NCBI RefSeq assembly: GCF_026241095.1
Contig: NZ_JAPFGB010000036.1
Coordinates: forward strand, 3,234 to 40,751
DNA: 37,518 nt
Direction: 5' to 3'
Origin: Saccharopolyspora sp. NFXS83
GTDB lineage: Bacteria > Actinomycetota > Actinomycetes > Mycobacteriales > Pseudonocardiaceae
Shown: piece after piece, positions 3,453 through 23,060 of the stretch
Layout of the letters: every line of letters begins with the position of its first letter
Position numbering within the stretch: the stretch's first letter is position 1
The notes under the pieces: generated by a model
What the model was told of the DNA's origin: nothing
The model's database searches: none
The model's input: only the letters and a program-made list of their open reading frames with translations
Program-made: the position numbers and the translations under genes

Positions 3453-3461
3453 GTTGCTTGA

Positions 3462-3637
3462 GTGGCCGGGTGGCGGAACCTCAGCGGCTTCCTCGCTGCG
3501 GGATCTTTTCCCGAGTGGCTCCGCCACGAGGGAAAAAGCCGTCCTCGCGAGGAAGCCGCTGAGAACCCGCGGGTGACCGCCTTCTCGACGTGGGCTATGC
3601 GCTGACGCGCATACAGGCACGGCCTCCGGCCGCAAGG
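3462..3637 (+). repeat. Convergent-gap hairpin element, copy 1
   Basis: This is a structured element ten bases after the mutT1 stop. Stem I has perfect 17-bp arms (3480-3496 and 3547-3563, CTCAGCGGCTTCCTCGC). Nested inside it are TTTTCCC/GGGAAAA and GTGGC/GCCAC pairs. Stem II is TATGCGC/GCGCATA (3596-3602, 3607-3613). Stem III is CGGCC/GGCCG (3620-3632). Related copies lie at 7841-7940, 12290-12480 and, inverted, 20757-21005. The gap is between convergent genes (mutT1 and hupB). The element may work as a bidirectional terminator and may be spread as a REP-like sequence; both ideas are inference. Confidence 0.85.
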
Positions 3638-3717
3638 CGCGGTTCGGTCGCTTCGCTCTTCGCGGACCGGGGCGTCCGAGGCGGGGCATCGAGGCTGGAA
3701 ACGTCTCGCCGTGGAGC

Positions 3718-3791
3718 GGTTCTTGGACCGGAACGGCGATGATCCCGGCCCGATCGCCATCGCGATCGCACCGGGATCATCGCTGAGAACC
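3718..3791. terminator. Nested inverted repeat downstream of hupB
   Basis: Perfect 13-bp arms GCGATGATCCCGG (3736-3748) and CCGGGATCATCGC (3771-3783) enclose an inner CGATCGC/GCGATCG hairpin (3751-3768). They are flanked by GGTTCT (3718-3723) and AGAACC (3786-3791), giving a third pairing layer. It lies 160 bp beyond the hupB stop in the mutT1-hupB convergent gap. There is no T-tract. A bidirectional terminator is likely, but another DNA-structure role cannot be excluded. The rest of 3638-3952 shows nothing else I can name. Confidence 0.5.
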
Positions 3792-3952
3792 GGCGGAGCA
3801 CCTCTGTTCGGGCACGGCCGCGGTGCCCGTGGCACGGGTACCGGGGCCGCGCGTCGCTCCGCCGCCGCGCGTGGCGCGGGTGACGCTGCGCCGTGTGCGG
3901 GGATGCCACCCGCGAACGCCTGCGAAGCTCGGCTCGCTCAGGCGGCGAGCGC

Positions 3953-4777
3953 TCACTTCTTGGCGGTCTTGCGCGTGGTCTTGCCCGCGGAGGCCTTGGC
4001 GGTCGAGGTCTGGGCGCCGGACGTCTTGGCCGCGGAGGTCTTCGCGGCGGAGGTCTTGGCGGTCGACTTCGAGGCGGTGGCCTTGGTGGTGGCGGCCTTC
4101 TTCGGCGCGGCCTTGGTGGCCGGAGCCTTGGTGGCCGTCGCCTTGGAGGTCGTGGCCTTGCCGGTGGCGGCCTTGGAGGCGGTCGCCTTGGTCGCGGTCG
4201 CCTTGGTTCCGGTGGACTTGGCGGCGGTCGTCTTGCTGCCCGCGGCCGTCTTCGGCGCGGCCTTGGTGGCGGCCGGCTTCGCGCTGGACCGCGTGGCGGC
4301 GGCCTTCTTCGGCGCCGTCTTGGTGGCGGCGGCGGTCTTCGCCGTGCTCCGGGTGCCCGCTGCCTTGGTGGCGGGGGCCTTGGTCGCCGTACCGGCGGAC
4401 TTGGTCGTGGCGCGCCCGGTGCCCGCGGTCTTCGTCGCGGTGCTGCGGGTGCCCGCGGACTTGGTGCCCGCCGACTTCGCGGCCGTCGCGCGGGGCAGTT
4501 TCCGGCTGCCGCCCACGACTTCCTTGAACTGGGTGCCGGCGCGGAATGCCGGGACGTTGGTCTTCTTCACCTTGACGGCCTCGCCGGTGCGCGGGTTGCG
4601 CGCGGTGCGGGCGGCACGTGCGCGCTTCTCGAAGACACCGAAGCCGGTGATGTTGACCTTTTCGCCCTTGTTGACGTTGCGGACGATGAGGTCCACGACG
4701 CCCTCTACCGCCTGACTGGCGGTCTTCTTGTCGCCGAGGCGTTCCGCGAGTGCCTCGATGAGTTGGGCTTTGTTCAC
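3953..4777 (-). CDS. hupB: HU-type nucleoid protein with long Lys/Ala-rich H1-like tail
   Basis: A 274-residue histone-like protein. Residues 1-90 are a standard HU domain ([24 protein letters not shown], and the DNA-binding arm ARNPRTGE near residues 59-66). The rest is a low-complexity tail of repeated TKA, AKT and KKA blocks ending in KTAKK, as in actinobacterial HupB/HupS, where such tails bind DNA and compact the nucleoid. The tail, about 175 residues, is long for the family. I chose the GTG at 4777 because it matches the usual HU N-terminus and has GGGAGGG upstream; the reading frame itself stays open further upstream. The gene is convergent with mutT1 and lies downstream of leuCD on the same strand, separated by 229 bp with inverted repeats, so it is probably transcribed on its own. 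Confidence 0.95.
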
Positions 4778-4860
4778 TTCAGTCCCTCCCAGGACAACAA
4801 CGGCCCCGTCGGGCCGACTCAAAACCCACGGTAAAGCCCTGAGTTGCCGAATGCCATTCG

Positions 4861-4887
4861 CCACGCCCCATTTTTTCGTTGGGGCGT
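4861..4887. terminator. Inverted repeat between leuD and hupB
   Basis: CACGCCCC (4861-4868) pairs with GGGGCGTG (4880-4887), and the loop holds a T-run. It could end leaders or readthrough from leuCD, or be part of the hupB upstream region. The sequence does not decide between these. Confidence 0.35.
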
Positions 4888-4942
4888 GGGGCTTTCGGCG
4901 GCTCAGGGCTCGTATCGCCGGTTTCCCGGTTAGGTTGTGAAC

Positions 4943-5000
4943 ACCGGCCGCGGAGTCGGATTTTCCCTGCGCAGCAAGGAGAACCGAGCCCGCGGCCGGT
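4943..5000 (-). terminator. Inverted repeat just after leuD, possible terminator
   Basis: ACCGGCCGCGG (4943-4953) and CCGCGGCCGGT (4990-5000) form perfect 11-bp arms, starting seven bases after the leuD stop. The 36-base loop is long and there is no T-tract, so the call is tentative. Confidence 0.35.
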
Positions 5001-5006
5001 TCCGGT

Positions 5007-5609
5007 TCAGCCCGCGCGAGCGGGCAGCGTGGCCGGTTTGAAGGAAGGGCGGGTTTTCTCGTACGTGTCGATCGTCTCGGCGTGGCGCAGGGTCAAACCG
5101 ATGTCGTCGAGCCCTTCCAGCAGCCGCCAGCGGGTGTAGTCGTCGATGGCGAACGGGACGGTGAGGTCTTTCGCCTGCACGGTCCGCTCTTGCAGATCGA
5201 CGGTCACCTGGGTGCCGGGCTCGTTCTCCAGCAGCTTCCAGAGCAGTTCCACATCGGACTGGGCGCACTCGGCGGCGAGCAGTCCCTGTTTGCCGGAGTT
5301 GCCGCGGAAGATGTCGGCGAACCGGGAGGAGATGACCACCCGGAAGCCGTAGTCCTTGAGCGCCCACACGGCGTGCTCGCGGGACGATCCGGTGCCGAAG
5401 TCGGGTCCGGCGACCAGCACGCTGCCGTTGCGGAAGGCGTCGTTGTTGAGGATGAAGTTCTCGTCGTTGCGCCACGCGGCGAACAACGCGTCCTCGAACC
5501 CCGTGCGCGCGACCCGCTTGAGGTACACGGCGGGGATGATCTGGTCAGTGTCCACGTTGGACCGCCGCAGCGGAACGCCGACGCCGGTGTGCTGGGTGAA
5601 CGGTTCCAT
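5007..5609 (-). CDS. leuD: 3-isopropylmalate dehydratase small subunit
   Basis: LeuD supplies the swivelling domain of isopropylmalate isomerase, which with LeuC converts 2-isopropylmalate to 3-isopropylmalate in leucine synthesis. The 200-residue protein has the expected length. It carries the family motifs near the N-terminus ([14 protein letters not shown]), the [17 protein letters not shown] substrate loop at about residues 68-84, and the [11 protein letters not shown] segment. The ATG at 5609 is preceded by AAAGGAG. It follows leuC after 25 bp on the same strand, so the two are cotranscribed, and the pair is divergent from ndgR. All expected motifs are intact. Confidence 0.97.
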
Positions 5610-5634
5610 CGTTGCTCCTTTCGGGTCGGGTGGA

Positions 5635-7038
5635 TCAGTCGAGGTCGTCGGGCGACGACAGGGTGCCGCGCACCGCGGTGGCGGCGGCCACCAGCGGGGA
5701 GACCAGGTGGGTGCGACCGCCTTTGCCCTGCCGTCCCTCGAAGTTCCGGTTCGAGGTCGACGCGCTGCGCTCGCCGGGGGCGAGCTGGTCGGGGTTCATC
5801 CCGAGGCACATGGAGCAGCCCGCCGAACGCCATTCGGCGCCCGCGGCGGTGAAAACCTCGTTGAGCCCTTCGGACTCGGCCTGCAGCCGCACCTTCATCG
5901 AGCCGGGCACCACCAGCATCCGCACGTCCTGGGCCACCTTGCGCCCGTCCAGGACGGCCGCTGCGGCCCGCAGGTCCTCGATGCGGCCGTTGGTGCAGGA
6001 ACCGAGGAAGACGGTGTCCACGGCGACCTCGCGCAGCGGCGTGCCGCCTTCCAGGCCCATGTAGTCGAGCGCCTTCTCGACGGCGTAGCGCTCGGAGTCG
6101 TCGCCGATGGTCTCCGGGTCGGGGATGCGCTCCCCCAGCGGCAGGCCCTGCCCGGGGTTGGTGCCCCAGGTGACGAACGGGGTCAGCGAGTCAGCGTCGA
6201 GGGTGATCTCGGCGTCGAATTCGGCGTCCTCGTCGGTGCGCAGCGTCTTCCAGTACTCGACGGCGGCGTCCCAGTCGGTGCCTTCCGGCGCGTGCGGGCG
6301 GCCCTTGAGGTACTCGAAAGTCGTCTCGTCGGGGGCGATCATCCCGGCGCGGGCGCCCGCTTCGATCGACATGTTGCAGACCGTCATGCGGGATTCCATG
6401 GACAGCTGCCGGATCGCTTCGCCCCGGTACTCCAGGACGTAGCCCTGCCCGCCGCCGGTCCCGATCTGGGCGATGACGGCGAGGATGATGTCCTTGCTCG
6501 TCACGCCGGGCCGCAACGAGCCTTCGACGTTGATCGCCATGGTCTTGAACGGGCGCAGCGGCAGCGTCTGGGTGGCCAGCACGTGCTCCACTTCGGAGGT
6601 GCCGATGCCGAACGCGAGCGCGCCGAACGCGCCGTGGGTGGAGGTGTGGCTGTCGCCGCACACCACCGTGGTGCCGGGCTGGGTGAGCCCCAGCTGCGGT
6701 CCCACCACGTGCACGATGCCCTGCTCCGCGTCGCCCATCGGGTGCAGGCGGACGCCGAACTCCTCGCAGTTGCGCCGCAAGGTGTCCACCTGGGTGCGCG
6801 ACACCGGGTCGGCGATCGGGAGATCGATGCCGGTGGTGGGCACGTTGTGGTCCTCGGTGGCGATCGTGAGGTCGGGGCGGCGGACCGGCCGGTCCGCCAG
6901 CCGCAGCCCTTCGAACGCCTGCGGGCTGGTGACTTCGTGCACGAGGTGGAGGTCGATGTAGAGCAGGTCCGGCTCATGACCTTCGCCTCGGCGCACGATG
7001 TGGCCGCTCCAGACCTTCTCCGCGAGCGTGTTGCCCAT
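5635..7038 (-). CDS. leuC: 3-isopropylmalate dehydratase large subunit
   Basis: LeuC is the aconitase-family large subunit that holds the [4Fe-4S] cluster for the second step of leucine synthesis. The 467-residue protein starts [15 protein letters not shown]. It shows the [33 protein letters not shown] core (quoted here only as a landmark between its [10 protein letters not shown] and EVEHVLATQ ends), and cluster-ligand cysteines in the [12 protein letters not shown] and GCSMCLGMN segments. The ATG at 7038 has GGGGAGGAG upstream. It is divergent from ndgR across a 96-bp gap that contains a palindromic operator, so repression by NdgR is likely; the related LtbR and NdgR proteins are known to bind leuCD upstream regions. 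leuD follows in the same operon. Confidence 0.97.
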
Positions 7039-7101
7039 CGCTCCTCCCCATCGAGATGTGGTGGTCGCACCCCGGTTCCGGGGCACTGTCCCAAAGAGTG
7101 G

Positions 7102-7122
7102 ACTTCTCAGATATCGAGAAGT
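7102..7122. promoter_or_regulatory. Palindromic operator between leuC and ndgR
   Basis: ACTTCTC (7102-7108) and GAGAAGT (7116-7122) are perfect 7-bp arms around AGATATC. The centre resembles the TCTGAGATATC-type core reported for LtbR-like IclR regulators. It overlaps the expected ndgR promoter and lies 63 bp upstream of the leuC start. NdgR is the obvious candidate to bind it, controlling itself and leuCD. Confidence 0.7.
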
Positions 7123-7128
7123 TAGTAT
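7123..7128 (+). promoter_or_regulatory. -10 box of ndgR; transcript probably leaderless
   Basis: TAGTAT ends six bases before the GTG start at 7135, which is the spacing expected when transcription begins at the start codon. No Shine-Dalgarno sequence is present. The operator abuts the box on its 5' side. Confidence 0.45.
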
Positions 7129-7134
7129 CGGTAC

Positions 7135-7836
7135 GTGGGACAGCATAGCGGCATCGGAGTGTTGGACAAGGCAGTGGCCGTGTTGCAGGCCGTGGCGGGC
7201 GAACCGTGCGGCCTGACGGAGTTGTGCGGGCGCACGGGCCTGCCCAGGGCGACGGCGCATCGGCTCGCGGTGGGCCTGGAGGTGCACCGCTTGCTGCGCC
7301 GCGGCTCGGACGGCCGGTGGCGTCCCGGTGCCGCACTGGCGGAGCTGGCGGGCGGCGCGGTGGACCCCTTGCTGGAGGCCGCTTCGACGGTGCTGCCCAA
7401 ATTGCGGGACATCACGGGCGAAAGCGTGCAGCTCTACCGCCGGGACGGCATGCAGCGCCTGTGCATCGCTTCCGCGGAACCCCCCAGCGGCCTGCGCGAC
7501 ACGGTCCCCGTGGGCTCCACCCTCCCGATGGTCGCGGGCTCCGGGGCGAAGGTCCTGGCCGCCTGGGCGGATCCCGCGACGCAACGAGCGGTCCTGGCCG
7601 AAGCGGTCTTCGGAGAACGCACTCTCCTGGAGGTCAGGCGGCGGGGCTGGGCTCAAAGCGTCGCGGAACGAGAATCAGGCGTGGCCAGCGTCTCGGCCCC
7701 CGTCCGCGACTCCCAAGGCGGCGTAGTGGCCGCGATCTCCGTCTCAGGCCCCATAGACCGAATGGGCCGCCGCCCAGGAGCCCGCTGGGCAGCAGACCTG
7801 CTAGCAGCAACCGAAGGCTTGCAGAACCGCCTCTGA
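7135..7836 (+). CDS. ndgR: IclR-family regulator of leuCD (NdgR/LtbR type)
   Basis: This 233-residue IclR-family regulator begins [20 protein letters not shown], an N-terminus typical of NdgR, LtbR and AreB proteins of actinobacteria. Residues about 8-60 form the winged helix-turn-helix ([20 protein letters not shown]). The rest is the IclR effector-binding domain, including the [18 protein letters not shown] segment. Family members bind leuCD and other amino-acid operator sites and sense branched-chain amino acids or related signals. The start is a GTG with no ribosome-binding site, so the mRNA is probably leaderless. Divergence from leuC and the palindrome between them support direct control of leucine synthesis. 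A hairpin repeat element follows five bases after the stop. Confidence 0.93.
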
Positions 7837-7840
7837 GGCC

Positions 7841-7940
7841 CCCGGCAGCGGGGTCTCAGCTGGTTCCTCGCCGCAGGATCGCTTTCCCGATGGCTCCGCC
7901 ACGAGGGAACAGCCGTCCGCGCGAGGAACCATCTGCCCCC
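7841..7940 (+). repeat. Convergent-gap hairpin element, copy 2 (stem I only)
   Basis: Arms CAGCTGGTTCCTCGC (7857-7871) and GCGAGGAACCATCTG (7921-7935) pair with one mismatch. The inner TGGC-TCC-GCCA hairpin and the TTCCC/GGGAA pair are kept. Stems II and III are absent. It sits in the convergent gap between ndgR and the tRNA-Glu gene, in the same orientation as copies 1 and 3. Bases 7941-8041 that follow are C/A-rich with a short (AAGACC)3 run and show no gene. Confidence 0.8.
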
Positions 7941-8041
7941 ACCGCAACGCCGGTCGCATTGCACGACCACCACTCACCCACCAACAAGACCAAGACCAAG
8001 ACCACCAAAGCAGCACAAAGCCACTCACCAACCCCGAACAC

Positions 8042-8081
8042 GATTAGGGCCCCACTTCCAAAAGGAAGTGGGGCCCTAATC
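8042..8081 (-). terminator. Terminator of the tRNA transcription unit
   Basis: An 18-bp perfect stem (8042-8059 with 8064-8081) closes on a 4-base loop, directly after the 3' end of tRNA-Glu. There is no long T-tract, as is common for actinobacterial terminators. Confidence 0.85.
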
Positions 8082-8085
8082 ACTG

Positions 8086-8158
8086 TAGTCCCGACGGGAT
8101 TCGAACCCGCGCCGCCGGCGTGAGAGGCCGGTGTCCTAGGCCGCTAGACGACGGGGCC
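8086..8158 (-). tRNA. tRNA-Glu (anticodon CTC)
   Basis: The 73-base cloverleaf has D arm GTC/GAC, a 5-bp anticodon stem CCGGC/GCCGG with loop CTCTCAC (anticodon CTC, codon GAG), and T arm GCGGG-TTCGAAT-CCCGT. CCA is not encoded. The acceptor stem has G1-U72 and a C3-A70 mismatch; the other pairs are canonical. It is the second gene in a unit with tRNA-Gln and ends at the strong hairpin 8042-8081. Its product is the substrate of GltX. Confidence 0.9.
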
Positions 8159-8165
8159 CTAGAAC

Positions 8166-8187
8166 GAACGATCATTGCTGATCGTTC
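8166..8187 (-). other. Hairpin between the two tRNA genes
   Basis: GAACGATCA (8166-8174) and TGATCGTTC (8179-8187) form a perfect 9-bp stem with a 4-base loop, filling the spacer between tRNA-Gln and tRNA-Glu. It may guide precursor processing. Confidence 0.5.
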
Positions 8188-8189
8188 CG

Positions 8190-8261
8190 CTGGGGTACCA
8201 GGACTCGAACCTAGACTAACTGAACCAGAATCAGTCGTGCTGCCGATTACACCATACCCCA
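8190..8261 (-). tRNA. tRNA-Gln (anticodon CTG)
   Basis: The 72-base cloverleaf has acceptor arms TGGGGTA and TACCCCA with discriminator G, anticodon loop TTCTGGT (anticodon CTG, codon CAG) and T loop TTCGAGT. CCA is not encoded. The U1-A72 pair is the usual recognition feature for transamidation of Glu-tRNA(Gln) by GatCAB, which is encoded in this same window. Confidence 0.95.
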
Positions 8262-8343
8262 TCGGCTTCGGTGTCCAGCGGTCTTCGCTCGGGCTTCTGG
8301 AGGAAGTCCGACCGGTTCGTCGCTGTCCGCCTTGCTGATGAAA

Positions 8344-8372
8344 ATAGTAGAGCATGGCCCGCGACGCCGTGA
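8344..8372 (-). promoter_or_regulatory. Probable promoter of the tRNA unit
   Basis: On the minus strand a -10 box TACTAT (8349-8344) is preceded by TCACGG (8372-8367) with 17-bp spacing. It lies about 80 bp upstream of the tRNA-Gln 5' end. The -35 match is weak. Bases 8373-8465 show nothing else. Confidence 0.4.
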
Positions 8373-8465
8373 CAGCACCCCCCTCTTATGCCGATTTCCC
8401 TGGTGGGGGCGGGTTTCGGGTGCACCGTCGCGGGTGGACGTCACCGGTTCGCGGGCCGGGCTCGG

Positions 8466-9269
8466 TCAGCGGGTGAGCGCGCCGATGCGCGTGGTCTCGC
8501 GCGGTGCCGGGTCCCCGGGGGCGTGCTGGGCGGGGATCTCGGGGGCGAACGGCAGGTCGCAGACGAGGAGTTCGGGGAGCTCGGCGAGGCTGGTGATCAT
8601 CGAAACGCCTTCGGGCGGCGCGTGTTCGGTGCCGCTGCGGTTGAGCCAGACGCCGTGCAGGCCCGCGTCGGCGGCGCCGAGGGCGTCGGTGTCGAGCCGG
8701 TCGCCGACGTGCACGACTTCGTGCGGGGCCGCGTCGAGGGATTCGCAGGCGGCGTGGAAGATCCGCGGATCCGGTTTGGCGACTCCGAGTTCGCCGGAGA
8801 TGAGCATGCTGTCGAAGGCGCCGGCCAGTCCGGTGTGGCTGATCTTCTTGCGCTGGTAGGCGCTGGGCGCGTTGGTGATGACGGCCAGTCGCAGGCCGCT
8901 GGCGCGCATCCATTCGAGGCAGGGCAGGGCGTCGTCGAACAGCCGCCAGGCGGCCTGCATGGCGGCCATCCGGTAGTCCTCGCGGACGGCGGCTTCGGCG
9001 TCGCTGATCTGCTCGCCGAAGGCGGCGAAGAAGGCGCGGGTGCGTTCGACGCACATGGTGGCGAAGTCGACTTCGCCGGCCACGTACCGCTCGTAGTGGT
9101 CTTCGGTGGTGTGGCGCCACACGGGCCAGGCGGCGTCGTTGCCGATGAGGGCGCGCAGGCCGAGGCGGGAGGAGGCGGCGTTGTCGAGCAGGGTGTCGTC
9201 GATGTCCAGGCACACGGCTTTGATGCGGCCGAGTTCAGGCGTGGTCGGAGGGTGCGGCGCGGATGTCAC
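8466..9269 (-). CDS. HAD-family hydrolase
   Basis: This 267-residue haloacid dehalogenase-like protein has motif I LDIDDTLLD at residues 21-29 (nucleophile D22, acid D24), motif II in LAVITNAPS, motif III lysine in GVAKPDPRIF, and motif IV in VHVGDRLDTDALGAADAG. The helical cap after motif I (about residues 28-125) resembles phosphatases of the YjjG/phosphoglycolate phosphatase group. It probably dephosphorylates a small phosphorylated metabolite, but the substrate cannot be read from the sequence. It lies between gltX and the tRNA genes on the same strand. A strong hairpin downstream of gltX suggests that it is transcribed separately. Confidence 0.88.
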   Translation of the reverse strand: MTSAPHPPTTPELGRIKAVCLDIDDTLLDNAASSRLGLRALIGNDAAWPVWRHTTEDHYERYVAGEVDFATMCVERTRAFFAAFGEQISDAEAAVREDYRMAAMQAAWRLFDDALPCLEWMRASGLRLAVITNAPSAYQRKKISHTGLAGAFDSMLISGELGVAKPDPRIFHAACESLDAAPHEVVHVGDRLDTDALGAADAGLHGVWLNRSGTEHAPPEGVSMITSLAELPELLVCDLPFAPEIPAQHAPGDPAPRETTRIGALTR

Positions 9270-9358
9270 CCCGAGAGGCTAGGGGTTCACCGGCGGTGTC
9301 CGCCTCGTCCAAGACGGTGATAGTCGTTGGCCTGACACGGTTTAGTCGAGGTACCAGT

Positions 9359-9391
9359 ACCGGGTGACGTCCACTGGGGACATCACCCGGT
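9359..9391 (-). terminator. Terminator of gltX
   Basis: ACCGGGTGA (9359-9367) pairs with TCACCCGGT (9383-9391), and inner GTCC/GGAC pairs extend the stem past one mismatch. It begins 20 bp after the gltX stop. Confidence 0.7.
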
Positions 9392-9411
9392 CGCTGGAAT
9401 CGTGCTGCTGA

Positions 9412-10905
9412 TCAGACCAGCGCGCGGCGGAGCCGGTTCAGCGAGACCTCGCGGCCGAGCAGTTCCATGGATTCGTACAGCGGCGGCGAGACGGTGCGGC
9501 CGGTGACGGCGACGCGGACGGGCGCGAAGGCCTTGCGGGGTTTGATGCCGAGTCCGTCCACGACGGACTCCTTCAGCGCCGCTTCGATGGCTTCGGTGGT
9601 CCATTCGGGAAGCGCGTCGAGCGCGCCGATGGCGGCGTCGAGCACGGGCCGGGCGTCGTCGCCGAGGGCCTTGGCCGCGGAGGCCTCTTCGGGCTCGAAG
9701 TCCTCGCCTGCGAACAGGAATCGCATCATGCCGACGGCGTCGGAGAGCACGATGAGCCGTTCCTGCACGAGCGGCGCGGCGGCCCGCACGGTCGCGAGCT
9801 GCTGCTCGGTCGGTTCGGCGTCGAGCACGCCGCCGTCGACCAGGTAGGGCACGACGCGCTGCACGAAGTCGTCCGGGGCGAGCGCCCGCAGGTGCGCCGA
9901 GTTGATCGCGTCGGCCTTCTTCTGGTCGAACCGGGCGGGGTTGCCGCTGACCCGGCTGATGTCGAAGGCCTCGACCATCTCGTCGAGGGTGAACACGTCG
10001 CGGTCGTCGGCGATGGACCAGCCGAGCAGCGCGAGGTAGTTGAGCAGTCCCTCGGGCAGGAATCCGCGGTCGCGGTGGTGGAACAGGTCGGAAGCGGGGT
10101 CGCGCTTGGAGAGCTTCTTGTTGCCTTCGCCCATGACGAACGGCAGGTGCCCGAACTCGGGGACGAAGTCGGTGACGCCGATGCGCTGCAGCGCCTCGTA
10201 GAGGGCGATCTGGCGCGGCGTCGACGACAGCAGGTCTTCGCCGCGCAGCACGTGCGTGATGCGCATGAGCGCGTCGTCGACGGGGTTGGTGAGCGTGTAG
10301 AGCGCGTCGCCGCTGCCGCGGACCAGCACCGGGTCGGGCACGGTGCCCGCGCGGAAGGTGATCTCGCCGCGGACGAGGTCGGTGAAGGTGATGTCGTGGT
10401 CCGGCATCCGCAGCCGCAGCACCGGGGTGCGGCCTTCGGCGCGGTGGGCGGCCTTCTGCTCGTCGGTGAGGTCGCGGTCGAAGTTGTCGTAGCCGAGCTT
10501 GGGGTCGCGGCCCGCGGCCTTGTGCCGGGCTTCGACCTCTTCCGGCGACGAGAACGCCTCGTAGAGCTCACCGGCGTCGAGCAGGCGCCGCGCGATGTCC
10601 GCGTAGACGTCCTTGCGCTCGCTCTGCCGGTACGGCCCGTAGGGGCCGCCGACCTCGGGACCTTCGTCCCAGTCGAGCCCCAGCCAACGCAGCGCGTCGA
10701 GCAGCGCGTCGTAGGACTCCTGGCTGTCCCGGCTGGCGTCGGTGTCCTCGATGCGGAACACCAAGGTGCCTTGGTGGTGCCGGGCGAAAGCCCAGTTGAA
10801 CAGGGCGGTGCGGATGAGCCCGACGTGCGGTGTGCCGGTCGGTGACGGGCAGAACCGGGCGCGGACGGTTCCGGGCGCTGGTGTGGCGAACTCTGGCGTG
10901 CTCAT
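9412..10905 (-). CDS. gltX: Glutamyl-tRNA synthetase
   Basis: GltX charges tRNA(Glu) with glutamate. In organisms that use GatCAB it also makes Glu-tRNA(Gln), which is then amidated. The 497-residue class I synthetase has the HIGH-like motif [10 protein letters not shown] at residues 20-29, the RIEDTDASR segment that follows, and the KMSKS-like KKLSKR at 263-268. Length and motifs are standard. The start is ATG at 10905. tRNA-Glu and tRNA-Gln lie just downstream on the same strand and gatCAB is 22 kb away, so all parts of the indirect Gln-tRNA pathway are in this window. I see no glutaminyl-tRNA synthetase here. A palindrome lies in the divergent gap with the next gene. Confidence 0.97.
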
Positions 10906-10972
10906 GACCGGTCCACCCTATCCGGCGGGGTTCGGTGCTTGACCAGCGACTCCGGGAGGAGCACCCTGAGGT

Positions 10973-10992
10973 TATTCAACGCATGTTGAATA
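10973..10992. promoter_or_regulatory. Palindromic operator ahead of the FAD monooxygenase
   Basis: TATTCAAC-GCAT-GTTGAATA is a perfect 8-bp inverted repeat and is AT-rich against its surroundings. It lies 48 bp upstream of the monooxygenase ATG and 67 bp upstream of the gltX start. The size and symmetry fit a MarR- or TetR-type repressor site. No such regulator is encoded next to it. Confidence 0.55.
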
Positions 10993-11040
10993 TCGATCTC
11001 GGAGTGCACCGGTGTGCGGCGCCGGGTAGGAGTGATCGCA

Positions 11041-12276: not shown

Positions 12277-12289
12277 TCCTCGTTCTGCT

Positions 12290-12480: not shown

Positions 12481-12494
12481 CCGCCCGCCGGGGG

Positions 12495-13271: not shown

Positions 13272-13344
13272 GGCGGACCTCTTTTCGTTCCTGGTTGCTT
13301 CGTACTCGGCTCGCTCGTGCTGGGACGAGGCGAACCGTCCCAGC

Positions 13345-15033: not shown

Positions 15034-15119
15034 TGGATCTCTCCTGTCGGCTTCGATGGCGATGCCTGCGGCGGGGACTGCTCGTCACCTCGCGGCGCGT
15101 GCCAGGAGCGTCCGGGCAC

Positions 15120-15186
15120 AAAAAAGACCCCCCGCGGAATGCGAGAGGTCTGCGCGCCGGGGGTGCGGAGTCGTCACCCGGCGCGC
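15120..15186 (-). promoter_or_regulatory. Attenuator hairpins ahead of cimA
   Basis: In transcript order, a 10-bp perfect stem (15186-15177 with 15161-15152, GCGCGCCGGG) overlaps the end of the leader ORF. A terminator follows: AGACCTC (15151-15145) pairs with GGGGTCT (15131-15125, one U-G pair) and ends in six U residues. The terminator lies 86 bp before the cimA start. This is the layout of peptide-mediated attenuation; the alternative fold was not computed. Confidence 0.65.
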
Positions 15187-15218
15187 GTTCCGATAATGAT
15201 CGTGGTGCTGATGGCCAC
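15174..15218 (-). CDS. Candidate Ile/Thr-rich leader peptide of cimA
   Basis: A 14-codon ORF from GTG at 15218 reads MAISTTIIIGTRAG and stops at 15174-15176. Four of its 14 residues are Ile, three in a row, with three Thr. Its end overlaps the first attenuator stem. The composition matches leaders of Ile/Thr-responsive operons, so stalling at the Ile codons would report isoleucyl-tRNA shortage. Weak points are the GTG start, no clear Shine-Dalgarno sequence, and no promoter that I could place. Confidence 0.55.
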   Translation of the reverse strand: MAISTTIIIGTRAG

Positions 15219-15283
15219 GCCCGCATGCTGCCACAACCCGGCCGACCGGTACCACTTGGGCGGACCGCGATCCGACGCAGAAC

Positions 15284-15310
15284 GGGCGCCTCCCCCAGGG
15301 GAAGGCGCCC
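15284..15310 (-). terminator. Terminator of leuB
   Basis: GGGCGCCT (15284-15291) pairs with AGGCGCCC (15303-15310), with C/G pairs continuing inside. It starts 16 bp after the leuB stop and separates leuB from the cimA leader. Confidence 0.7.
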
Positions 15311-15326
15311 GCCGTGCGTGCGTGGA

Positions 15327-16370
15327 TCAGGCCTGCTGGGCCACCTCGCGGGAGGACACCAGCGCCGCGAGCCGATCGCCGACGGCGAAGGTCGCCCCCG
15401 GCGCCGAGTGGTCGCGCGTCGCCAGGTCGAAGGCCACCGAGGCCTCCACCCTGCGCGCCGCCTCGGTCTGCCCGACGTGGTCGAGCAGCAGCGCCACCGA
15501 CAGCACCGCTGCCGTCGGGTCCGCAGACCCGTGCCCGGCGATGTCCGGCGCGCTGCCGTGCACCGGCTCGAACATGCTCGGGTTGCGGCGCGTGGCGTCG
15601 ATGTTGCCGCTCGCCGCCAGCCCGATGCCGCCGGTGACCGCGCCCGCCAGGTCGGTGATGATGTCGCCGAACAGGTTGTCCGTGACGATCACGTCGAACC
15701 GGCCCGGGTCGGTCACCAGGTGGATCGTGGTGGCGTCCACGTGCTGGTAGGCCACGGTCACGTCGGGGTGCTGCAGCGAGACCTCTTCGACCACGCGGGA
15801 CCACAAGGAACCGGCGTGCGTGAGCACGTTGGTCTTGTGCACCAGCGTGAGGTGCTTGCGCGGCCGGGATGCGGCGCGGGCGAACGCGTCCCGCACCACC
15901 CGCTCCACGCCGAACGCCGTGTTGAGGCTGACCTCGGTGGCGATCTCGTGCGTGGTGTCCTTGCGCAGCAGCCCGCCGTTGCCCGCGTAGGGGCCTTCGG
16001 TGCCTTCGCGCACCACCACCATGTCGATCTCGCCCGGGTCGTTGACCGGGCTCTTCACACCCGGGTACAGCCGAGCGGGGCGGAGATTGACGTGGTGGTC
16101 GAGCTCGAAGCGCAGCCGCAGCAGCAGCCCCCGCTCCAGGATCCCGCTGGGCACCGAGGGGTCGCCGACCGCACCGAGCAGGATCGCGTCGTGCTGGCGC
16201 AATTCGGTGAGCACCGATTCCGGTAGCAGCTCACCGGTCGCGTGCCAGCGCGCGGCTCCCAGGTCGTATCGAGTGATCTCGGTATCGGGAACGACCTCAC
16301 CGAGCACCTTCAGCGCCTCGGCCACTACCTCCGGCCCGATCCCGTCACCGGGGATCACAGCGAGCCGCAT
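15327..16370 (-). CDS. leuB: 3-isopropylmalate dehydrogenase
   Basis: LeuB oxidatively decarboxylates 3-isopropylmalate in leucine synthesis and, with CimA, the methyl analogue in isoleucine synthesis. The 347-residue protein starts [20 protein letters not shown] and carries the substrate-arginine region [21 protein letters not shown] (quoted in part: [15 protein letters not shown]), the [20 protein letters not shown] metal site, and the [12 protein letters not shown] adenosine loop. The ATG at 16370 has GGGAGGT six bases upstream; the GTG at 16376 abuts that site and is less likely. It lies downstream of serA behind a terminator, so it probably has its own promoter in the 235-bp gap. Confidence 0.96.
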
Positions 16371-16531
16371 GTACACACCTCCCGACTACCACCCCGAACC
16401 GCGGGGCTAGAACTGTTGCGCCGAAGGCTACCGGCAAGGCCACGCAGGCAGGCACGCCGGACCCACCAAGTGGTCGAGGCTTCCCGATTGGCGGGACACT
16501 CGAACGGGTGACGCGGGTGAGCCGGGTCGCG

Positions 16532-16562
16532 AAAAGGGCCGCCCACAAGTGTGGGACGGCCC
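16532..16562 (-). terminator. Terminator of serA
   Basis: On the minus strand GGGCCG-T-CCCACA pairs with TGTGGG-CGGCCC around a 3-base loop, followed by TTTT. It lies 43 bp after the serA stop and before leuB. Confidence 0.8.
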
Positions 16563-16605
16563 TCGTCGCAGTCGCACCGGACGTCGCCGGTCGGAGATCA
16601 GCGGA

Positions 16606-18195
16606 TCACTCGAAGTCGACCGTCCGCACCGTGCGGGCGCCGACGGCGGCACCGATCGGCTCCAGCACGCCGGCCTCGACCGGTCGGTCCACCCGCAGCA
16701 GCATGATCGCGTCGGAGCGCTCGGTCGTCTGGCTGACCGTGGCGGCCTCGATGTTCACGCCCACCTCACCGAGCAGGGTGCCGACCGTGCCCATCACGCC
16801 GGGGCGGTCCGGGTACTCCAGCAGCAGCACGCTGCCCTCGGCCCGGAGGTCGAAGTGGCGGCCGTTGACCTCGATGAGCTTCTCCACCAGGTCCGCCCCG
16901 GACAGCGCGCCCGACACGACGGCGGAACGCCCGTCGGCGAGACCTGCGCGCACCGAGACGACGCTGCGGTGGTGCGGGCTCTCCGAGGTGGTCTTCACCT
17001 CGACCTCGACCCCGAGGTCCTCGGCGAGCTGCGGCGCGTTGACGAAGGTGACCTGGCTGTCCACGGCCCCGGAGAACACGCCGCGCAGCGCCGCGAGCTG
17101 CAGCACCGACACGTCCTCGTCGGCGAGCTCGCCGCGAGCCTCCACGGTCACCGAGGTCGGCGTGCTGCCCAGCACGGCCGACAGCAGCTGGCCCAGCTTC
17201 TGGGTCAGCGGCAGGTACGGGCGCACCTCTTCACCGACGGCGCCGCCCTGCACGTTGACCGCGTCCGGGACGAAGTCGCCGCGCAGCGCCAGCAGCACCG
17301 AGCGGGCCACGTCGGTGCCCGCGCGGTCCTGCGCCTCCGCGGTGGAGGCGCCCAGGTGCGGGGTGGCCACGACGTTGTCCAGCTCGAACAGCGGGCTGGA
17401 GGTGGTGGGCTCGGTCTTGTAGACGTCGATGCCCGCACCACCGATGTGGCCGTTGCGGATCGACTCGGCCAGCGCCTCCTCGTCGATGAGGCCGCCGCGA
17501 GCGGCGTTGACGACGATCAGGCCCTTCTTGGCCTTCTTGAGCTCCTCCGCGCCGATCAGGCCCAGCGTCTCGGCCGTCTTCGGCAGGTGGATGGAGAGAG
17601 CGTCGGCCCGCGCCAGCAGGTCCTCCAGGCTCACCAGCTCGATGCCCAGCTGCGCGGCGCGCGAGGCGGACACGTAGGGGTCGTAGGCGATGAGCTTGGT
17701 GCCGAAGGCGGCGATGCGCTGCGCGAACAGCTGGCCGATCTTGCCGAGGCCGACGACGCCGACGGTCTTGCCGTTGAGCTCGACGCCGCTGAAGGAGCTG
17801 CGCTTCCACTCCCCCGCCTTGAGGCTCGCGTCCGCGGCGGCCACGTTGCGGGCCACCGACAGCAGCAGCGCGAGGGCGTGCTCGGCGGCGGAGACGATGT
17901 TGGAGGTGGGGGCGTTGACCACCATCACGCCGCGCTCGGTGGCGGCGGGCACCTCGACGTTGTCCAGGCCCACGCCGGCGCGGGCGACGACCTTGAGCTT
18001 GCTCGTCGCGGACAGGACCTCGGCGTCGACCTTGGTCGCGGAGCGGACCAGCAGTGCGTCGGCGTCGGCGACGGCCGCGAGCAGGGCCGGCCGGTCCGTG
18101 CCGTCGACGTGGCGGATCTCGACCTCGTCTCCGAGCGCTTCGAGCACGGAGGGGGCAAGCTTCTCGGCGATCAGGACGACAGGACGATTGGTCAC
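16606..18195 (-). CDS. serA: D-3-phosphoglycerate dehydrogenase, long ACT-domain type
   Basis: SerA oxidises 3-phosphoglycerate to 3-phosphohydroxypyruvate, the first step of serine synthesis, using NAD. The 529-residue protein has the long actinobacterial layout: substrate-binding segments, a Rossmann domain with VGVVGLGKIG at about 145-154, the NAARGG and HLGASTAEAQDRAG catalytic regions, an intervening domain (about 320-450), and a C-terminal ACT domain with RPGVMGTVGTLLGEVGVNIEAA (from about 468) for serine feedback. I chose the GTG at 18195 because it gives MTNRPVVLIAEKLAPS, matching the family length (528 in M. tuberculosis), with GGAG eight bases upstream. The frame is open to 18237, but that start would add 14 unrelated residues. 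Confidence 0.96.
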   Translation of the reverse strand: MTNRPVVLIAEKLAPSVLEALGDEVEIRHVDGTDRPALLAAVADADALLVRSATKVDAEVLSATSKLKVVARAGVGLDNVEVPAATERGVMVVNAPTSNIVSAAEHALALLLSVARNVAAADASLKAGEWKRSSFSGVELNGKTVGVVGLGKIGQLFAQRIAAFGTKLIAYDPYVSASRAAQLGIELVSLEDLLARADALSIHLPKTAETLGLIGAEELKKAKKGLIVVNAARGGLIDEEALAESIRNGHIGGAGIDVYKTEPTTSSPLFELDNVVATPHLGASTAEAQDRAGTDVARSVLLALRGDFVPDAVNVQGGAVGEEVRPYLPLTQKLGQLLSAVLGSTPTSVTVEARGELADEDVSVLQLAALRGVFSGAVDSQVTFVNAPQLAEDLGVEVEVKTTSESPHHRSVVSVRAGLADGRSAVVSGALSGADLVEKLIEVNGRHFDLRAEGSVLLLEYPDRPGVMGTVGTLLGEVGVNIEAATVSQTTERSDAIMLLRVDRPVEAGVLEPIGAAVGARTVRTVDFE

Positions 18196-18412
18196 GGGCG
18201 CGCTCCATTGAGTGGGATCACGGTCGTAGCAGGGCACGGCGTTGTACCCGGACGGTCAGGCAGTTTAACGGGAGATTGAGAACTCGTTCACAAGGGTGTG
18301 ACGCATCCCAATCCCACTCCACACCGTCCGGGGGCACCGGCAACCGTGTTCGACCGGATCGGAATAAGAAGGTGTTCTAGCAGCTCAGCCGCTTGATTGC
18401 GCGGTTAATTGA

Positions 18413-18685
18413 TCACGGTTCGTCGAACTCGCCGTCCTTTGCTCCAGCGACGAAAGCGTCCCATTCCTCGGGAGTGAAAACGAGGACCGGGCCTTCGGGT
18501 TCGGCACCGTTGCGCATGCCGATGTAACCGTCGACGAAGGCGATCTCCACGCCGGGTTCGTCGTCGTCCTCGGTGCTGGTGATCCATTCCGCGTCGGTGA
18601 AGTCCAGCTTGTGCCGGATGTGCGCTTTGTCGTCCACCGGTGCGTCCACTGTCGTACTGGTCTCTTCGCTCACGCCGGGCACCAT
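18413..18685 (-). CDS. DUF397 family protein
   Basis: This 90-residue acidic protein carries the DUF397 pattern: EWITSTEDDD, then GVEIAFVDGYIGMRNG, then GPVLVFTPEEWDAFVAGAKDGEFD. DUF397 proteins are actinobacterial. They are usually encoded beside a WhiJ-like helix-turn-helix regulator, and the pairs affect development and antibiotic production. No such partner is next to this copy. It follows the EamA gene after only 10 bp, so the two are probably cotranscribed. I chose the ATG at 18685; a GTG at 18673 is possible. The molecular function is unknown. Confidence 0.85.
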   Translation of the reverse strand: MVPGVSEETSTTVDAPVDDKAHIRHKLDFTDAEWITSTEDDDEPGVEIAFVDGYIGMRNGAEPEGPVLVFTPEEWDAFVAGAKDGEFDEP

Positions 18686-18695
18686 ACCGCCGCCG

Positions 18696-19754
18696 TCACG
18701 TCCGCTCGATCGCATGATCGGGTGTGGTCGGCACCGCCGTGCGCTCGCCGCATCGCTGCTCAGCGGGGTCGATCCCGCCTCCGCGCACGATCTCGGCCCG
18801 CGGGGCGGCCAGCGTCGCGACCGCGTTGGCGCCGACGATGACCACGATCGCGGCCCACTCCGGCCAGCCCGGCCGCTGCCCCAGCACCACGGCCCCGGCC
18901 AGGGCGGCCAGCACCGGGTTGACGCTCATGAACACCCCGAAGAACTGCGCGGGCACGCGGCGCAGCGCGAGCAGGTCGGCGAGGAAGGGCACGACCGACG
19001 ACAGCACTCCCGCGACGACGGCGAAGCCGAGCGCCCCCGCGGTCGGCGGGTTGCGCACGAGCACCAGGGCACCGATCGGCAGGTACGCGACCGCGGAGAC
19101 GGCCGCCGCGGCGGCCGAGCCCTGCACGCCGGGCACCCGGCGGCCGACGGTGCGGTTGAGCAGGATGTAGCAGCCCCAGCACACCGCCGCCAGCAGCGCC
19201 AGCGCGATGCCGGGGTAGTCGGTGCTCGGTTGCGGGCGGACGAGCACCACGACGGCCGCGGCGGCGGCGAGCGCGCAGCCGAGGTCGAGCAGCCGCCGGG
19301 ACGCGATCAGCGCCACCGCCAGCGGCCCGAGGAATTCCAGCGTGACCGCGAGTCCCAGGCCGATGTGGTCGATCGCGGTGTAGAGCGACAGGTTCATCGT
19401 GGCGAACACCCCGGCCAGGCCCAGCACCGGCCACCACTGGCGGGCGGTGAACGAGCGGAACCGGGGCCGTCCGGCCAGCAGCAGCACGATGCCCGCGACC
19501 CACTGGCGCACCGCGACCACGCCCGCCGGGCCGATCACCGGGAACGCCAGCGCCCCGGTCGCCGCCCCGAGCTGGTTGGACAGCCCGCCGCCCAGCATCA
19601 GGGCCATCCCGGCACCCCTGCCGGTGCCGCCCGACCCGGTGGTCCCGGCGCCCGGCTCACCGGTTCCCGATCCGCCGCTGACCGCGCAGGCGGTCTCCGG
19701 TCCGGCGATTCCCCTCGCGGCGGGGTTTTCGGCCCGCTCCGCTCCCGTCCTCAT
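18696..19754 (-). CDS. EamA/RhtA-type drug-metabolite transporter
   Basis: A membrane protein of about 352 residues with ten predicted hydrophobic helices in two EamA repeats (for example FPVIGPAGVVAVRQWVAGIV early and VVAGVLSSVVPFLADLLALR late). This matches the RhtA-like branch of the drug/metabolite transporter superfamily. Some RhtA relatives export threonine and homoserine; the substrate here is not shown. The ATG at 19754 leaves a Gly/Ser-rich cytoplasmic lead of about 50 residues before the first helix. An ATG at 19607 would remove it and is a real alternative. The gene diverges from a LysR regulator 69 bp away, the usual arrangement for a regulator and its target, and it precedes the DUF397 gene. 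Confidence 0.88.
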   Translation of the reverse strand: MRTGAERAENPAARGIAGPETACAVSGGSGTGEPGAGTTGSGGTGRGAGMALMLGGGLSNQLGAATGALAFPVIGPAGVVAVRQWVAGIVLLLAGRPRFRSFTARQWWPVLGLAGVFATMNLSLYTAIDHIGLGLAVTLEFLGPLAVALIASRRLLDLGCALAAAAAVVVLVRPQPSTDYPGIALALLAAVCWGCYILLNRTVGRRVPGVQGSAAAAAVSAVAYLPIGALVLVRNPPTAGALGFAVVAGVLSSVVPFLADLLALRRVPAQFFGVFMSVNPVLAALAGAVVLGQRPGWPEWAAIVVIVGANAVATLAAPRAEIVRGGGIDPAEQRCGERTAVPTTPDHAIERT

Positions 19755-19823
19755 GGTCCCGAGAATCGGGGTCGCCGTCGGCCGCGCAAAATGCATCGGC
19801 GGCCCCCGCCATACGCTGGAGTC

Positions 19824-20705
19824 ATGGATGTGGAGCTGCGGCACCTGCGGTGCCTGGTCGCGATCGTGGACACCGGCACGTTCACCGACGCCGCGATCGA
19901 GCTGGGCGTCTCGCAGGCGGCGGTCTCGCGCACGGTGCTGGCGCTGGAGCACGCGCTCGGCGTGCGGCTGTTGCACCGGACCAGCCGCACCTGCACTCCG
20001 ACCACGGCGGGCGTGCAGGTGCTCGCCCGCGCCCGGCACCTGCTCGCTGAGGTCGACGACCTGGTCCGCGAGGCCACCACCGGGCACACCCGGCTGCGGC
20101 TGGGCCACGCCTGGTCGGCGATGGGCAGGCACACCAACGAGTTCCAGCGCCGTTGGGCGAGCCGCCACCCCGACGTCGAGCTCCACCTGGTCCGCACCAA
20201 CACGCAGACCGGCGGTCTCGCCGAGGGGGCGTGCGACCTGGCGGTGGCGCGCGTGGGGATCGACGCCCACCGCTACGCCCACGCCACCGTCGGGCACGAG
20301 CGCCGCTACTGCGCGCTGGCCGCCGACGATCCGTGGGCGCGCCGCCGTTCCTTGACGCTGGACGAGATCCGGCGGCGCGTCCTGGCCGTCGACCACCGCA
20401 CCGGCACCACCACCGCGGACCTGTGGCCGCCGGAGGACCGCCCCGAGCTGGAGCGCACACCGGACATCGACGACTGGCTGGCCGCGATCTCCACCGGCCG
20501 CTGCGTGGGCATCACCCCGCAGAGCACCCTCACCCAGTACCGCCGCGACGGCATCGTCTACCGCCCTGTCCGAGACGCCGCCCCCGTCCCCGTTCACCTG
20601 ATCTGGCGCCGCCACGACCCGCACCCCGCAACCCCGGCCGCGGTAGCCCTCCTAACAGAGCTCTACGCCGAAGCGGACCACGCACCCCACCGCCCCACCC
20701 GCTGA
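19824..20705 (+). CDS. LysR-family transcriptional regulator
   Basis: This 293-residue LysR regulator has the N-terminal winged helix at residues 1-60 (ELRHLRCLVAIVDTGTFTDA, SQAAVSRTVLALEHALGVRL, LLHRTSRTCTPTTAG). A periplasmic-binding-like effector domain begins near residue 90. It probably controls the divergent EamA gene and itself. TACGCT ends six bases before the ATG at 19824, so the transcript may be leaderless, although GGAG sits two bases before the ATG. Its C-terminus ends in a Pro/His-rich run. A long gap with hairpin element copy 4 follows. Confidence 0.9.
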   Translation: MDVELRHLRCLVAIVDTGTFTDAAIELGVSQAAVSRTVLALEHALGVRLLHRTSRTCTPTTAGVQVLARARHLLAEVDDLVREATTGHTRLRLGHAWSAMGRHTNEFQRRWASRHPDVELHLVRTNTQTGGLAEGACDLAVARVGIDAHRYAHATVGHERRYCALAADDPWARRRSLTLDEIRRRVLAVDHRTGTTTADLWPPEDRPELERTPDIDDWLAAISTGRCVGITPQSTLTQYRRDGIVYRPVRDAAPVPVHLIWRRHDPHPATPAAVALLTELYAEADHAPHRPTR

Positions 20706-20756
20706 CCGACCACCATCGAGCACGAAGCCGCGCAGAACGAGCACAACGAGCCCCAC

Positions 20757-21005
20757 CTAGCGGCCGAAGGCCATGCCTATGCGGCGAAGCCATGCAACGG
20801 GCAAGCGAAGCAAAGCCTGCCTTGCGGCCGAAGGCCGTGCCTGTAAAGCGCGAAGCGCTTTAGCCCACGTCCACAAGCCGACCACCCGCGGGTTCTCAGC
20901 GGCTTCCTCGCGAGGACAGCTTTTTCCCTCGTGGCGGAGCCACTCGGGAAAAAGATCCCGCAGCGAGGAAGCCGCTGAGGTTCCGCTACCCGACCACCAA
21001 AGCAA
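20757..21005 (-). repeat. Convergent-gap hairpin element, copy 4 (inverted, longest)
   Basis: On the minus strand this copy is nearly identical to copy 1. Stem I has the same 17-bp arms (20979-20963 with 20911-20895). Stem II is TAAAGCGC/GCGCTTTA (20862-20844), longer than and different in sequence from copy 1 but still perfectly paired. Stem III is CGGCC-TTC-GGCCG (20837-20825), and a second stem-III-like block follows near 20760-20778. It lies between lysR and ilvC, which are convergent. The following 21006-21170 is C/A-rich and holds a short direct repeat (ACGCCAAGCCGAAC, twice) but no gene that I can support. Confidence 0.88.

Positions 21006-21260: not shown

Positions 21261-23060
<1,800 letters not shown>

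What the first reader, a model, noticed from the sequence alone, without database searches (positions are those of the whole stretch)
3462..21005. A four-copy hairpin element found only in gaps between convergent genes
Related elements lie at 3462-3637, 7841-7940, 12290-12480 and, inverted, 20757-21005. Every copy sits between two genes that converge (mutT1/hupB, ndgR/tRNA-Glu, monooxygenase/FAH, lysR/ilvC). None sits in a divergent or same-strand gap, and two shorter convergent gaps (28310-28422, 30740-30800) lack it. Three copies begin within about 15 bp of a stop codon. I know of no named family with this three-stem layout, though REP/BIME-type elements are comparable. It may be a bidirectional terminator that spreads, or a supercoil-absorbing structure.
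Basis: partly seen in the sequence, partly recalled or inferred. Interest (0 to 1): 0.75.

Follow-up and report, generated by a model that had tools for sequence, protein, structure and literature searches.

The report
Mobile hairpin repeat beside stop codons
The four elements belong to a large, apparently undescribed family of small mobile DNA hairpins in Saccharopolyspora and relatives that mostly settle, head first, a short way behind the stop codons of genes, and are therefore common, but not exclusive, between converging genes.

Summary
The repeat is real: four copies in the window, about 150 in the genome (150 listed at the cap, six cut by contig ends). 'Only in convergent gaps' is false genome-wide: of 132 classified copies 60 are convergent, 65 same-strand, 7 divergent. 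The sharper rule is anchoring to gene 3' ends: 81 of 125 non-divergent copies have their head 5-36 bp behind a stop codon, 24 expected from random placement; 23 copies from two further genomes agree. The core is an 84-bp hairpin with covarying arms. Complete copies of one subtype are units of 219-246 bp with terminal inverted repeats. Orthologous gaps are often filled in one species and empty in another, so it moves. Y1/RAYT transposase is absent from the four genomes compared. Stem mismatches show no RNA-strand signature (GU 44, AC 42): terminator function is neither supported nor excluded. Best reading: a REPIN/MITE-like mobile palindrome tolerated or targeted behind stop codons, mobiliser unknown. 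No match in Rfam, phages, plasmids or nine paper searches.

The parts
3453..3658 (+). Copy 1 (subtype I): foot 3453-3479, large hairpin A 3480-3563, small hairpins B 3596-3613 and C 3614-3638; model start 7 bp behind the stop of the gene ending at 3452
   Evidence: HMM 3462-3658, CM 3471-3569 at 113.5 bits, distance; RNA fold of 3479-3567 -60.9 kcal/mol, z -9.19; sequence
7841..7941 (+). Copy 2, degenerate, hairpin A only; the match begins 8 bp behind the stop of the gene ending at 7836
   Evidence: CM 7846-7941, 47 bits, E 6.6e-10; HMM 51 bits
12292..12485 (+). Copy 3 (subtype I), head 14 bp behind the stop of the gene ending at 12276; 9 bp from the opposing gene
   Evidence: CM 12302-12400, 96.9 bits; distances
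20757..20998 (-). Copy 4 (subtype I, inverted) with extra small-hairpin modules at its tail (20757-20799, by eye); tail 94 bp from the stop at 20705, head 261 bp from the opposing stop, so not stop-anchored
   Evidence: CM 20889-20988, 122.2 bits; HMM 20800-20998; distances; sequence
21014..21044 (-). Accessory hairpin GTGGAAGG...CTTCCAC in front of the head of copy 4; near-identical sequence precedes the copies in L020, L030, L031, L050, L074, L080
   Evidence: head-flank listing of the 60 best copies; sequence
3738..3781 (.). Native terminator-like palindrome on the hupB side, kept beside copy 1
   Evidence: Present in all five genomes that could be aligned at this gap (G000, G003, G005, G002, G001; G004 could not); 86% and 89% of the G005 hairpin retained in G000 and G003

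Best explanation
A family of non-autonomous mobile palindromic elements (REPIN/MITE-like) of one actinomycete family (Pseudonocardiaceae, name recalled from the placement of Saccharopolyspora). Shown: a conserved foot, an 84-bp hairpin with covarying arms, two tail subtypes, terminal inverted repeats of 16 bp (up to 19 in some) in complete copies of subtype II, many copies, species-to-species turnover of sites, and a strong preference for lying head first 5-36 bp behind a stop codon. Inferred: an enzyme acting in trans (not a Y1 RAYT encoded by these four genomes, since none was found) moves the unit, perhaps as a folded DNA hairpin, into the short stretch between a stop codon and the gene's own terminator; purifying selection removes copies from genes and promoters; afterwards copies are swapped between sites by gene conversion or re-insertion and age neutrally. 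The convergent-gap enrichment then follows largely from such gaps having two 3' ends and no promoter. An effect on transcript 3' ends is possible but secondary.
For: Copy number: 131 core matches against 2 for the control; 150 of 150 scored CM candidates match, of 6222 first-look candidates (cap); 18 distinct places at E up to 0.01 in 800 kb of evenly spaced DNA. Position: 81 of 125 non-divergent copies have the head 5-36 bp behind a stop, 24.2 expected; head nearer than tail in 50 of 60 convergent copies. G018: 12 of 14 heads face a stop, 10 of them at 24-41 bp; G017: 9 of 9 face a stop, at 23-68 bp; 0 of 23 divergent. One gap in G003 and one in G018 hold two copies, each with its head to its own stop. 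Mobility: the 9 G000 sites against G005: 7 without hairpin A (one of them, copy 3's site, keeps a remnant of foot and tail), 2 filled; the 16 G003 copies against G004: 3 empty, 8 filled, 5 not comparable; three gaps filled in opposite orientation in G003 and G004. Ends: inverted 16-mer, up to 2 mismatches, 86 against 2 control matches in G003 and 24 against 2 in G000; ten inverted pairs 208-228 bp apart, eight of them 221-224; nine distinct units read. Conversion or re-insertion: in 16 of 21 orthologous-site pairs some other held copy is more alike, although the left-hand genes are 86-96% identical in 20 of 21. Palindrome: 94.6% of cells paired, 173 double changes against 51 in shuffles and at most 44 when slid. 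No RNA-strand signature: GU 44, AC 42. No Y1 in G000, G003, G004, G005.
Against: No enzyme and no autonomous partner found. No consistent target duplication in the nine units read. The 16-mer end is not clearly above its control in G004 (10 against 4) and rare in G005 (5 against 0). No such ends were recognised in subtype I, which includes the window's three clear copies, and copy 4 is not stop-anchored. In same-strand gaps the head faces the stop in only 37 of 65 (p 0.32). Seven copies are divergent. The head-against-tail comparison is partly biased, because the model stops short of the true tail in subtype II. Y1 genes are commoner in carriers across the family (22 of 68 carriers, 39 of 229 others, p 0.0097, kinship not corrected), so a Y1 origin is not excluded. 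Gene calls are from my own codon-model caller, trained on G000 and used unchanged on the other genomes.
Confidence: 0.62

Rival explanations
1. A bidirectional transcription terminator or RNA 3'-end protector that has multiplied because it is useful: the hairpin folds in RNA read from either side and stops polymerase or blocks exonucleases.
For: Very stable hairpin; sits behind stop codons and is depleted in divergent gaps; covarying arms; equal GU and AC mismatches are also what selection on both strands would give.
Against: No T-run after the large hairpin; the terminator scan of 3000-21300 finds only a marginal inner match in copies 1 and 4 and no excess overall (8 found, 6.2 expected). Stem mismatches are no rarer than changes at unpaired sites, and GU is not favoured even where the head follows a stop in a same-strand gap (9 to 7). 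Native terminators are not clearly lost next to it. The hairpin typically starts about 40 nt behind the stop, behind a conserved unpaired foot (27 nt in copy 1).
Confidence: 0.2
2. REP/REPIN elements moved by a RAYT that has since been lost, or by a Y1 enzyme supplied from outside. This is a narrower form of the mobile reading, not exclusive of it.
For: REPIN anatomy (inverted conserved ends, variable middle, compensatory changes; PMC3116915, passages seen); REPs also favour convergent and same-strand gaps close to 3' ends (PMC3733652, passages seen); Y1 commoner in carriers; GTAG lies in front of the hairpin in at most a third of G000 copies and in many S. sp. HNM0986 copies.
Against: 0 Y1 matches in the four genomes of the genus with most first-look candidates, present in the two with fewest; 46 of 68 carriers have none; the tetranucleotide is GTGG in about two thirds of G000 copies and 6 nt from the stem; turnover among genomes without the enzyme.
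Confidence: 0.2
3. Ordinary DDE-type MITEs derived from an insertion sequence still present somewhere in the genus. Also a narrower form of the mobile reading.
For: Terminal inverted repeats around units of 219-246 bp (six of the nine read; three shorter ones of 112-117 bp).
Against: No consistent target duplication in the nine units; no long unit with the same ends in the fetched loci, though these were mostly about 3 kb; no such ends recognised in subtype I.
Confidence: 0.25

Closest known systems
REPIN (REP doublet forming hairpin), RAYT-mobilised (PMC3116915, passages seen)
   Same: Extragenic hairpin of inverted conserved parts with variable middle and compensatory changes; many copies; turnover
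   Different: No Y1 match in 46 of 68 carriers; conserved foot on one side only; variable block inside each arm; second tail hairpin; terminal inverted repeats in subtype II
GTAG/CGTC REP super-families (PMC3733652, passages seen)
   Same: Sit mostly between convergent and same-strand genes, close to 3' ends
   Different: Those palindromes are described as 20-40 bp; here 84 bp within a unit of about 185-246 bp. The text has no occurrence of Saccharopolyspora, Amycolatopsis or Actinobacteria
ERIC / intergenic repeat units of enterobacteria (recalled; a listing gives 127 bp for RU-1)
   Same: Imperfect palindromes of similar length in intergenic DNA, mobiliser unknown
   Different: Other lineage; sequence not compared here; stop-anchored orientation not recalled for ERIC
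MITEs
   Same: Short, non-coding, terminal inverted repeats (subtype II), many copies
   Different: No parent transposon or target duplication found

Membership tests
REP / REPIN | RAYT (Y1_Tnp, PF01797) in the genome | tested here: not met
   0 matches in G000 and in G003, G004, G005; present in G001, G002; 46 of 68 carriers in the family sample have none (the two samples of 297 are taken to be the same genomes)
REP / REPIN | GTAG (or GGAG) tag next to the palindrome | tested here: not met
   Foot column 2 is G in about two thirds of 93 copies, giving GTGG; GTAG in at most a third; 6 nt from the stem
REP / REPIN | Many extragenic hairpin copies near gene 3' ends | tested here: met
REPIN | Two inverted conserved ends that pair, with compensatory changes | tested here: met
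   94.6% paired, 16 of 28 pairs with double changes on 55 sequences
MITE | Terminal inverted repeats | tested here: met
   Subtype II only: ten inverted pairs 208-228 bp apart, nine units read; not recognised in subtype I
MITE | Target-site duplication | tested here: inconclusive
   No consistent duplication in nine units
MITE | Parent transposon with the same ends | tested here: inconclusive
   None in the loci held, but most end loci are about 3 kb; two ends 4.5 kb apart in G003 (3834786 and 3839315) were not read because all searches and fetches were used
Intrinsic terminator | Hairpin followed by a U-run | tested here: not met
   Hairpin A is followed by GAACCCGCGGG-like sequence; scan only marginal
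Intrinsic terminator | Transcripts end there | not testable with these tools
   needs 3'-end RNA data
ERIC | Sequence similarity | not tested
   recalled family only
Any Rfam family | Score over the gathering cut-off | tested here: not met
   Only two tRNAs in the window; for copy 1, three matches at 17.9-19.9 bits against cut-offs of 55-90

The most novel reading that the evidence does not exclude
A miniature transposon that targets the few bases behind stop codons, usually in a fixed orientation, moved by an unknown, non-RAYT enzyme that copies it through a folded DNA hairpin. Copying one arm from the other would explain why the arms vary in blocks yet stay complementary with no excess of GU over AC.
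Probability: 0.3. Interest if true: 0.78.

Novelty: new variant of a known kind. Interest (0 to 1): 0.55.

Why it matters
It gives a clade of antibiotic producers (Saccharopolyspora and relatives) an abundant repeat family with a simple placement rule. REPIN spread is tied in the literature to RAYT (PMC3116915, passages seen); here turnover is seen among genomes without a detectable one, so the mobiliser becomes a concrete search problem with known ends. The 100 held G000 copies whose head faces a stop, some with empty orthologous sites, are ready-made tests of what a strong hairpin does to the end of a transcript. Copies lie at several contig ends of the draft genome.

Tried and rejected
(1) 'Convergent only': rejected. 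(2) RAYT as present mobiliser: rejected for this genome. (3) Element replaces native terminators: retention 15 of 39 with element, 153 of 317 without; no clear difference. (4) Insertion into the loop of each gene's own terminator, which would leave gene-specific inverted flanks: real head-tail pairs no more complementary than mismatched ones (31 type I, 28 type II, 21 other). (5) Insertion at TGA with duplication of the stop codon, suggested by 3-bp spacing in several units: stop usage at anchored G000 copies is 75 TGA of 87, background 518 of 585, and spacing runs from 1 to 13 bp among the 19 heads with a repeat-like start (17 distinct; two loci were counted twice in that script), 3-5 bp in 8 of the 17; rejected as a rule. 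(6) RNA-level selection on pairing: no support. (7) Half-element search for a long autonomous version in held G000 DNA: known or truncated copies, derivatives lacking hairpin A and probable chance hits. (8) Rfam, phage and plasmid searches: nothing. (9) First arm-extraction script gave nothing; the second was off by one base, so its zero for exact arm identity is an artefact and one search is the valid count. (10) Literature: nine answered paper searches (three of them returned no paper) gave, in their listings, no description of this family. PMC3610266: outline with abstract and passages. PMC3733652, PMC12306157, PMC2267715 and PMC3116915: passages only.
Full report
WHERE IT IS. The window is G000:C30:3234-40751 of a 6.9-Mb, 70-contig genome. 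Genome G001 of the same genus has a contig of 512,363 bases, the length of a Saccharopolyspora sp. HNM0986 contig that carries the repeat, so the genus is taken to be Saccharopolyspora in NCBI's sense (inference from equal contig length). G017 has the length that I recall for S. erythraea NRRL 2338 (recalled). The tool labels G017 and G018 as other genera of the same family; by NCBI names G017 would still be Saccharopolyspora.

THE OBSERVATION. All four elements are there. A 20-base core with up to 3 mismatches occurs 131 times in the genome against 2 for the reversed pattern. A covariance model built from 55 copies of several species matches at all 150 of the 150 places it was allowed to score, of 6222 first-look candidates; six of the 150 are cut by contig ends, so two could be halves of one copy, and the degenerate copy 2 is not in the list. 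It also matches at 18 distinct places at E up to 0.01 in 800 kb of evenly spaced DNA, so about 155 copies per genome is a fair estimate. The core 89 nt fold at -60.9 kcal/mol, z -9.2.

WHERE COPIES SIT. The copies come from 80 stretches round most of the 100 core matches that one search listed of its 131, 40 evenly spaced stretches, the rest of contig 30, and 20 stretches over 27 places of the model list. They hold 139 distinct copies; 7 at stretch or contig ends were dropped, leaving 132: 60 convergent, 65 same-strand, 7 divergent. In the sample not chosen by the core: 11 convergent, 6 same-strand, 1 divergent, 1 edge. By number of background gaps convergent gaps hold about three times, and divergent gaps about one fifth, of the expected share; by bases, about twice and one fifth.

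THE SHARPER RULE. In 100 of the 139 copies the head faces a stop codon, at a median of 22 bp, 83 of them within 5-36 bp; where the tail faces a stop (90 copies) the median is 88 bp and 13 lie within 5-36. Random placement and orientation in the same non-divergent gaps would put 24 of 125 heads within 5-36 bp; 81 are there. In convergent gaps the head is the nearer end in 50 of 60, a figure helped by the model ending before the true tail of subtype II. In same-strand gaps the orientation is not clearly biased (37 against 28, p 0.32), which limits the claim. In G018 and G017 all 23 copies in the 20 stretches examined lie next to a gene 3' end, 21 with the head towards a stop. One gap in G003 and one in G018 each hold two copies, each with its head to its own stop. 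In the window, copies 1-3 follow the rule and copy 4 does not.

ANATOMY. A foot (GGTGGTCGGGTRGCGGAAC) is followed by hairpin A: CTCA, a variable block, TCTCGC, a conserved internal loop (TGCGGGATC opposite GCTGTCC), and a variable inner stem. Then come two tail types. Type I, the type of window copies 1, 3 and 4, carries a GACGTGGGC linker and small hairpins that can be repeated. Type II carries a small hairpin made of the same bases as the foot of A's stem. Complete type II copies end in inverted repeats, CCTGTCTTTGATCTTG and its complement. Of nine distinct units read, six are 219-246 bp long and three are 112-117 bp and lack hairpin A. The end 16-mer is far above its control in G003 (86 against 2) and G000 (24 against 2), not clearly so in G004 (10 against 4) and rare in G005 (5 against 0). 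Among 17 distinct heads with a repeat-like start the stop lies 3-5 bp away in 8. Further units without hairpin A are as expected if long palindromes are deleted between short repeats. One copy (L047) has the interior of the palindrome inverted, and some copies have arms of different types (listing).

PAIRING. On the 55-sequence alignment 94.6% of cells pair; 16 of 28 pairs show double changes; 173 double-change cells against 51 in shuffles and at most 44 when the partner is slid. The structure was read from these sequences, so even the slid control leans in its favour, though the double changes are too many for that alone. In 93 G000 copies, on an alignment fitted to the model and leaving out one fixed T-G pair, 129 of 2403 cells are not Watson-Crick: 44 GU, 42 AC and 43 others. 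RNA-level selection should favour GU over AC. That is about 2.7% per base, against 2.6% in 41 unpaired columns (three more columns with over 25% deviation were left out). So in this genome copies look like recently spread, neutrally ageing palindromes whose complementarity arose before or during spread.

MOVEMENT. Comparing about 160 kb around the window in G003, G004 and G005, and 63 kb in G000, 46 copies were found (G000 9, G003 16, G004 17, G005 4). Gaps filled in one species are often short and empty in another, for example 258 against 30 and 3 bp, or 273 against 18 bp. 'Empty' means without hairpin A by the model; at the site of window copy 3, G005 keeps a remnant of foot and tail, which could be a loss. 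Three gaps are filled in opposite orientation in G003 and G004. In one case (G004) the copy lies between the stop and a terminator that its relatives share. In 16 of 21 orthologous-site pairs another held copy is more alike than the orthologous one, although the left-hand genes are 86-96% identical in 20 of 21; this points to gene conversion or repeated insertion.

DISTRIBUTION. All 6 genomes of the genus have it; 68 of 297 genomes and 14 of 46 genera of the family by nucleotide search; 18 of 298 in the order, all in the same family; in the class sample only the own genome of 296. The last two scans used stricter filters and may miss diverged copies. No match in phage or plasmid collections or Rfam.

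MECHANISM. A mobile, non-autonomous palindrome accounts for copy number, turnover, defined ends and exchange between sites. Placement could come from targeting or from selection that spares genes, promoters and terminators; the tight spacing and the paired copies in one gap favour some targeting, but no direct proof exists. Y1 transposase is absent from the four genomes that I compared for turnover, yet commoner in carriers across the family (22 of 68 against 39 of 229, p 0.0097, kinship not corrected), so an ancient Y1 origin remains open. The terminator reading is not excluded: it needs RNA data. The odds given for the rivals overlap, because two of them are narrower forms of the mobile reading.

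NOVELTY. The placement near 3' ends is known for REPs (PMC3733652) and compensatory changes for REPINs (PMC3116915); I saw passages of both. What I did not find in print is this family, its terminal repeats, its stop-anchored placement and its turnover without a RAYT. The searches are named in Tried and rejected; most subscription papers are not in that library.

Noticed in passing
G000 contig ends: C14:1-41, C20:1-98, C21:1-57, C35:45210-45264, C47:13168-13236, C69:1-55: Six contigs begin or end inside a copy, so the repeat probably breaks the assembly and the copy number is uncertain.
   Followed up: partly
L047 2428 region (G000:C34:258900-263900): Interior of the palindrome is inverted between its arms, a natural inversion.
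   Followed up: no
L013, L055, L060, L043, L018: Left and right arms belong to different arm types, as if two copies had recombined.
   Followed up: no
G005 gap orthologous to window 12277-12494; L089 19502, L097 16984, L104 16349, L212 2853, L234, L260: Units that have lost hairpin A but keep the foot and tail or the ends.
   Followed up: partly
just past the window, G000:C30 near 40.8 kb, and tails of many type I copies: Tandem arrays of a short unit around CACGGCTTCGCCG; one is interrupted by a run of N in the assembly.
   Followed up: no
window 7940-8050 and 20706-20750; tails in G003: By eye, intergenic DNA around copies is asymmetric between strands (A/C-rich on one, G/T-rich on the other); not measured.
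   Followed up: no
G003:C1:5261510-5261910 (joined coordinates 98011 and 98277); G018 L218 2499 and 2695: One convergent gap holds two copies in opposite orientation, each with its head to its own stop codon.
   Followed up: yes
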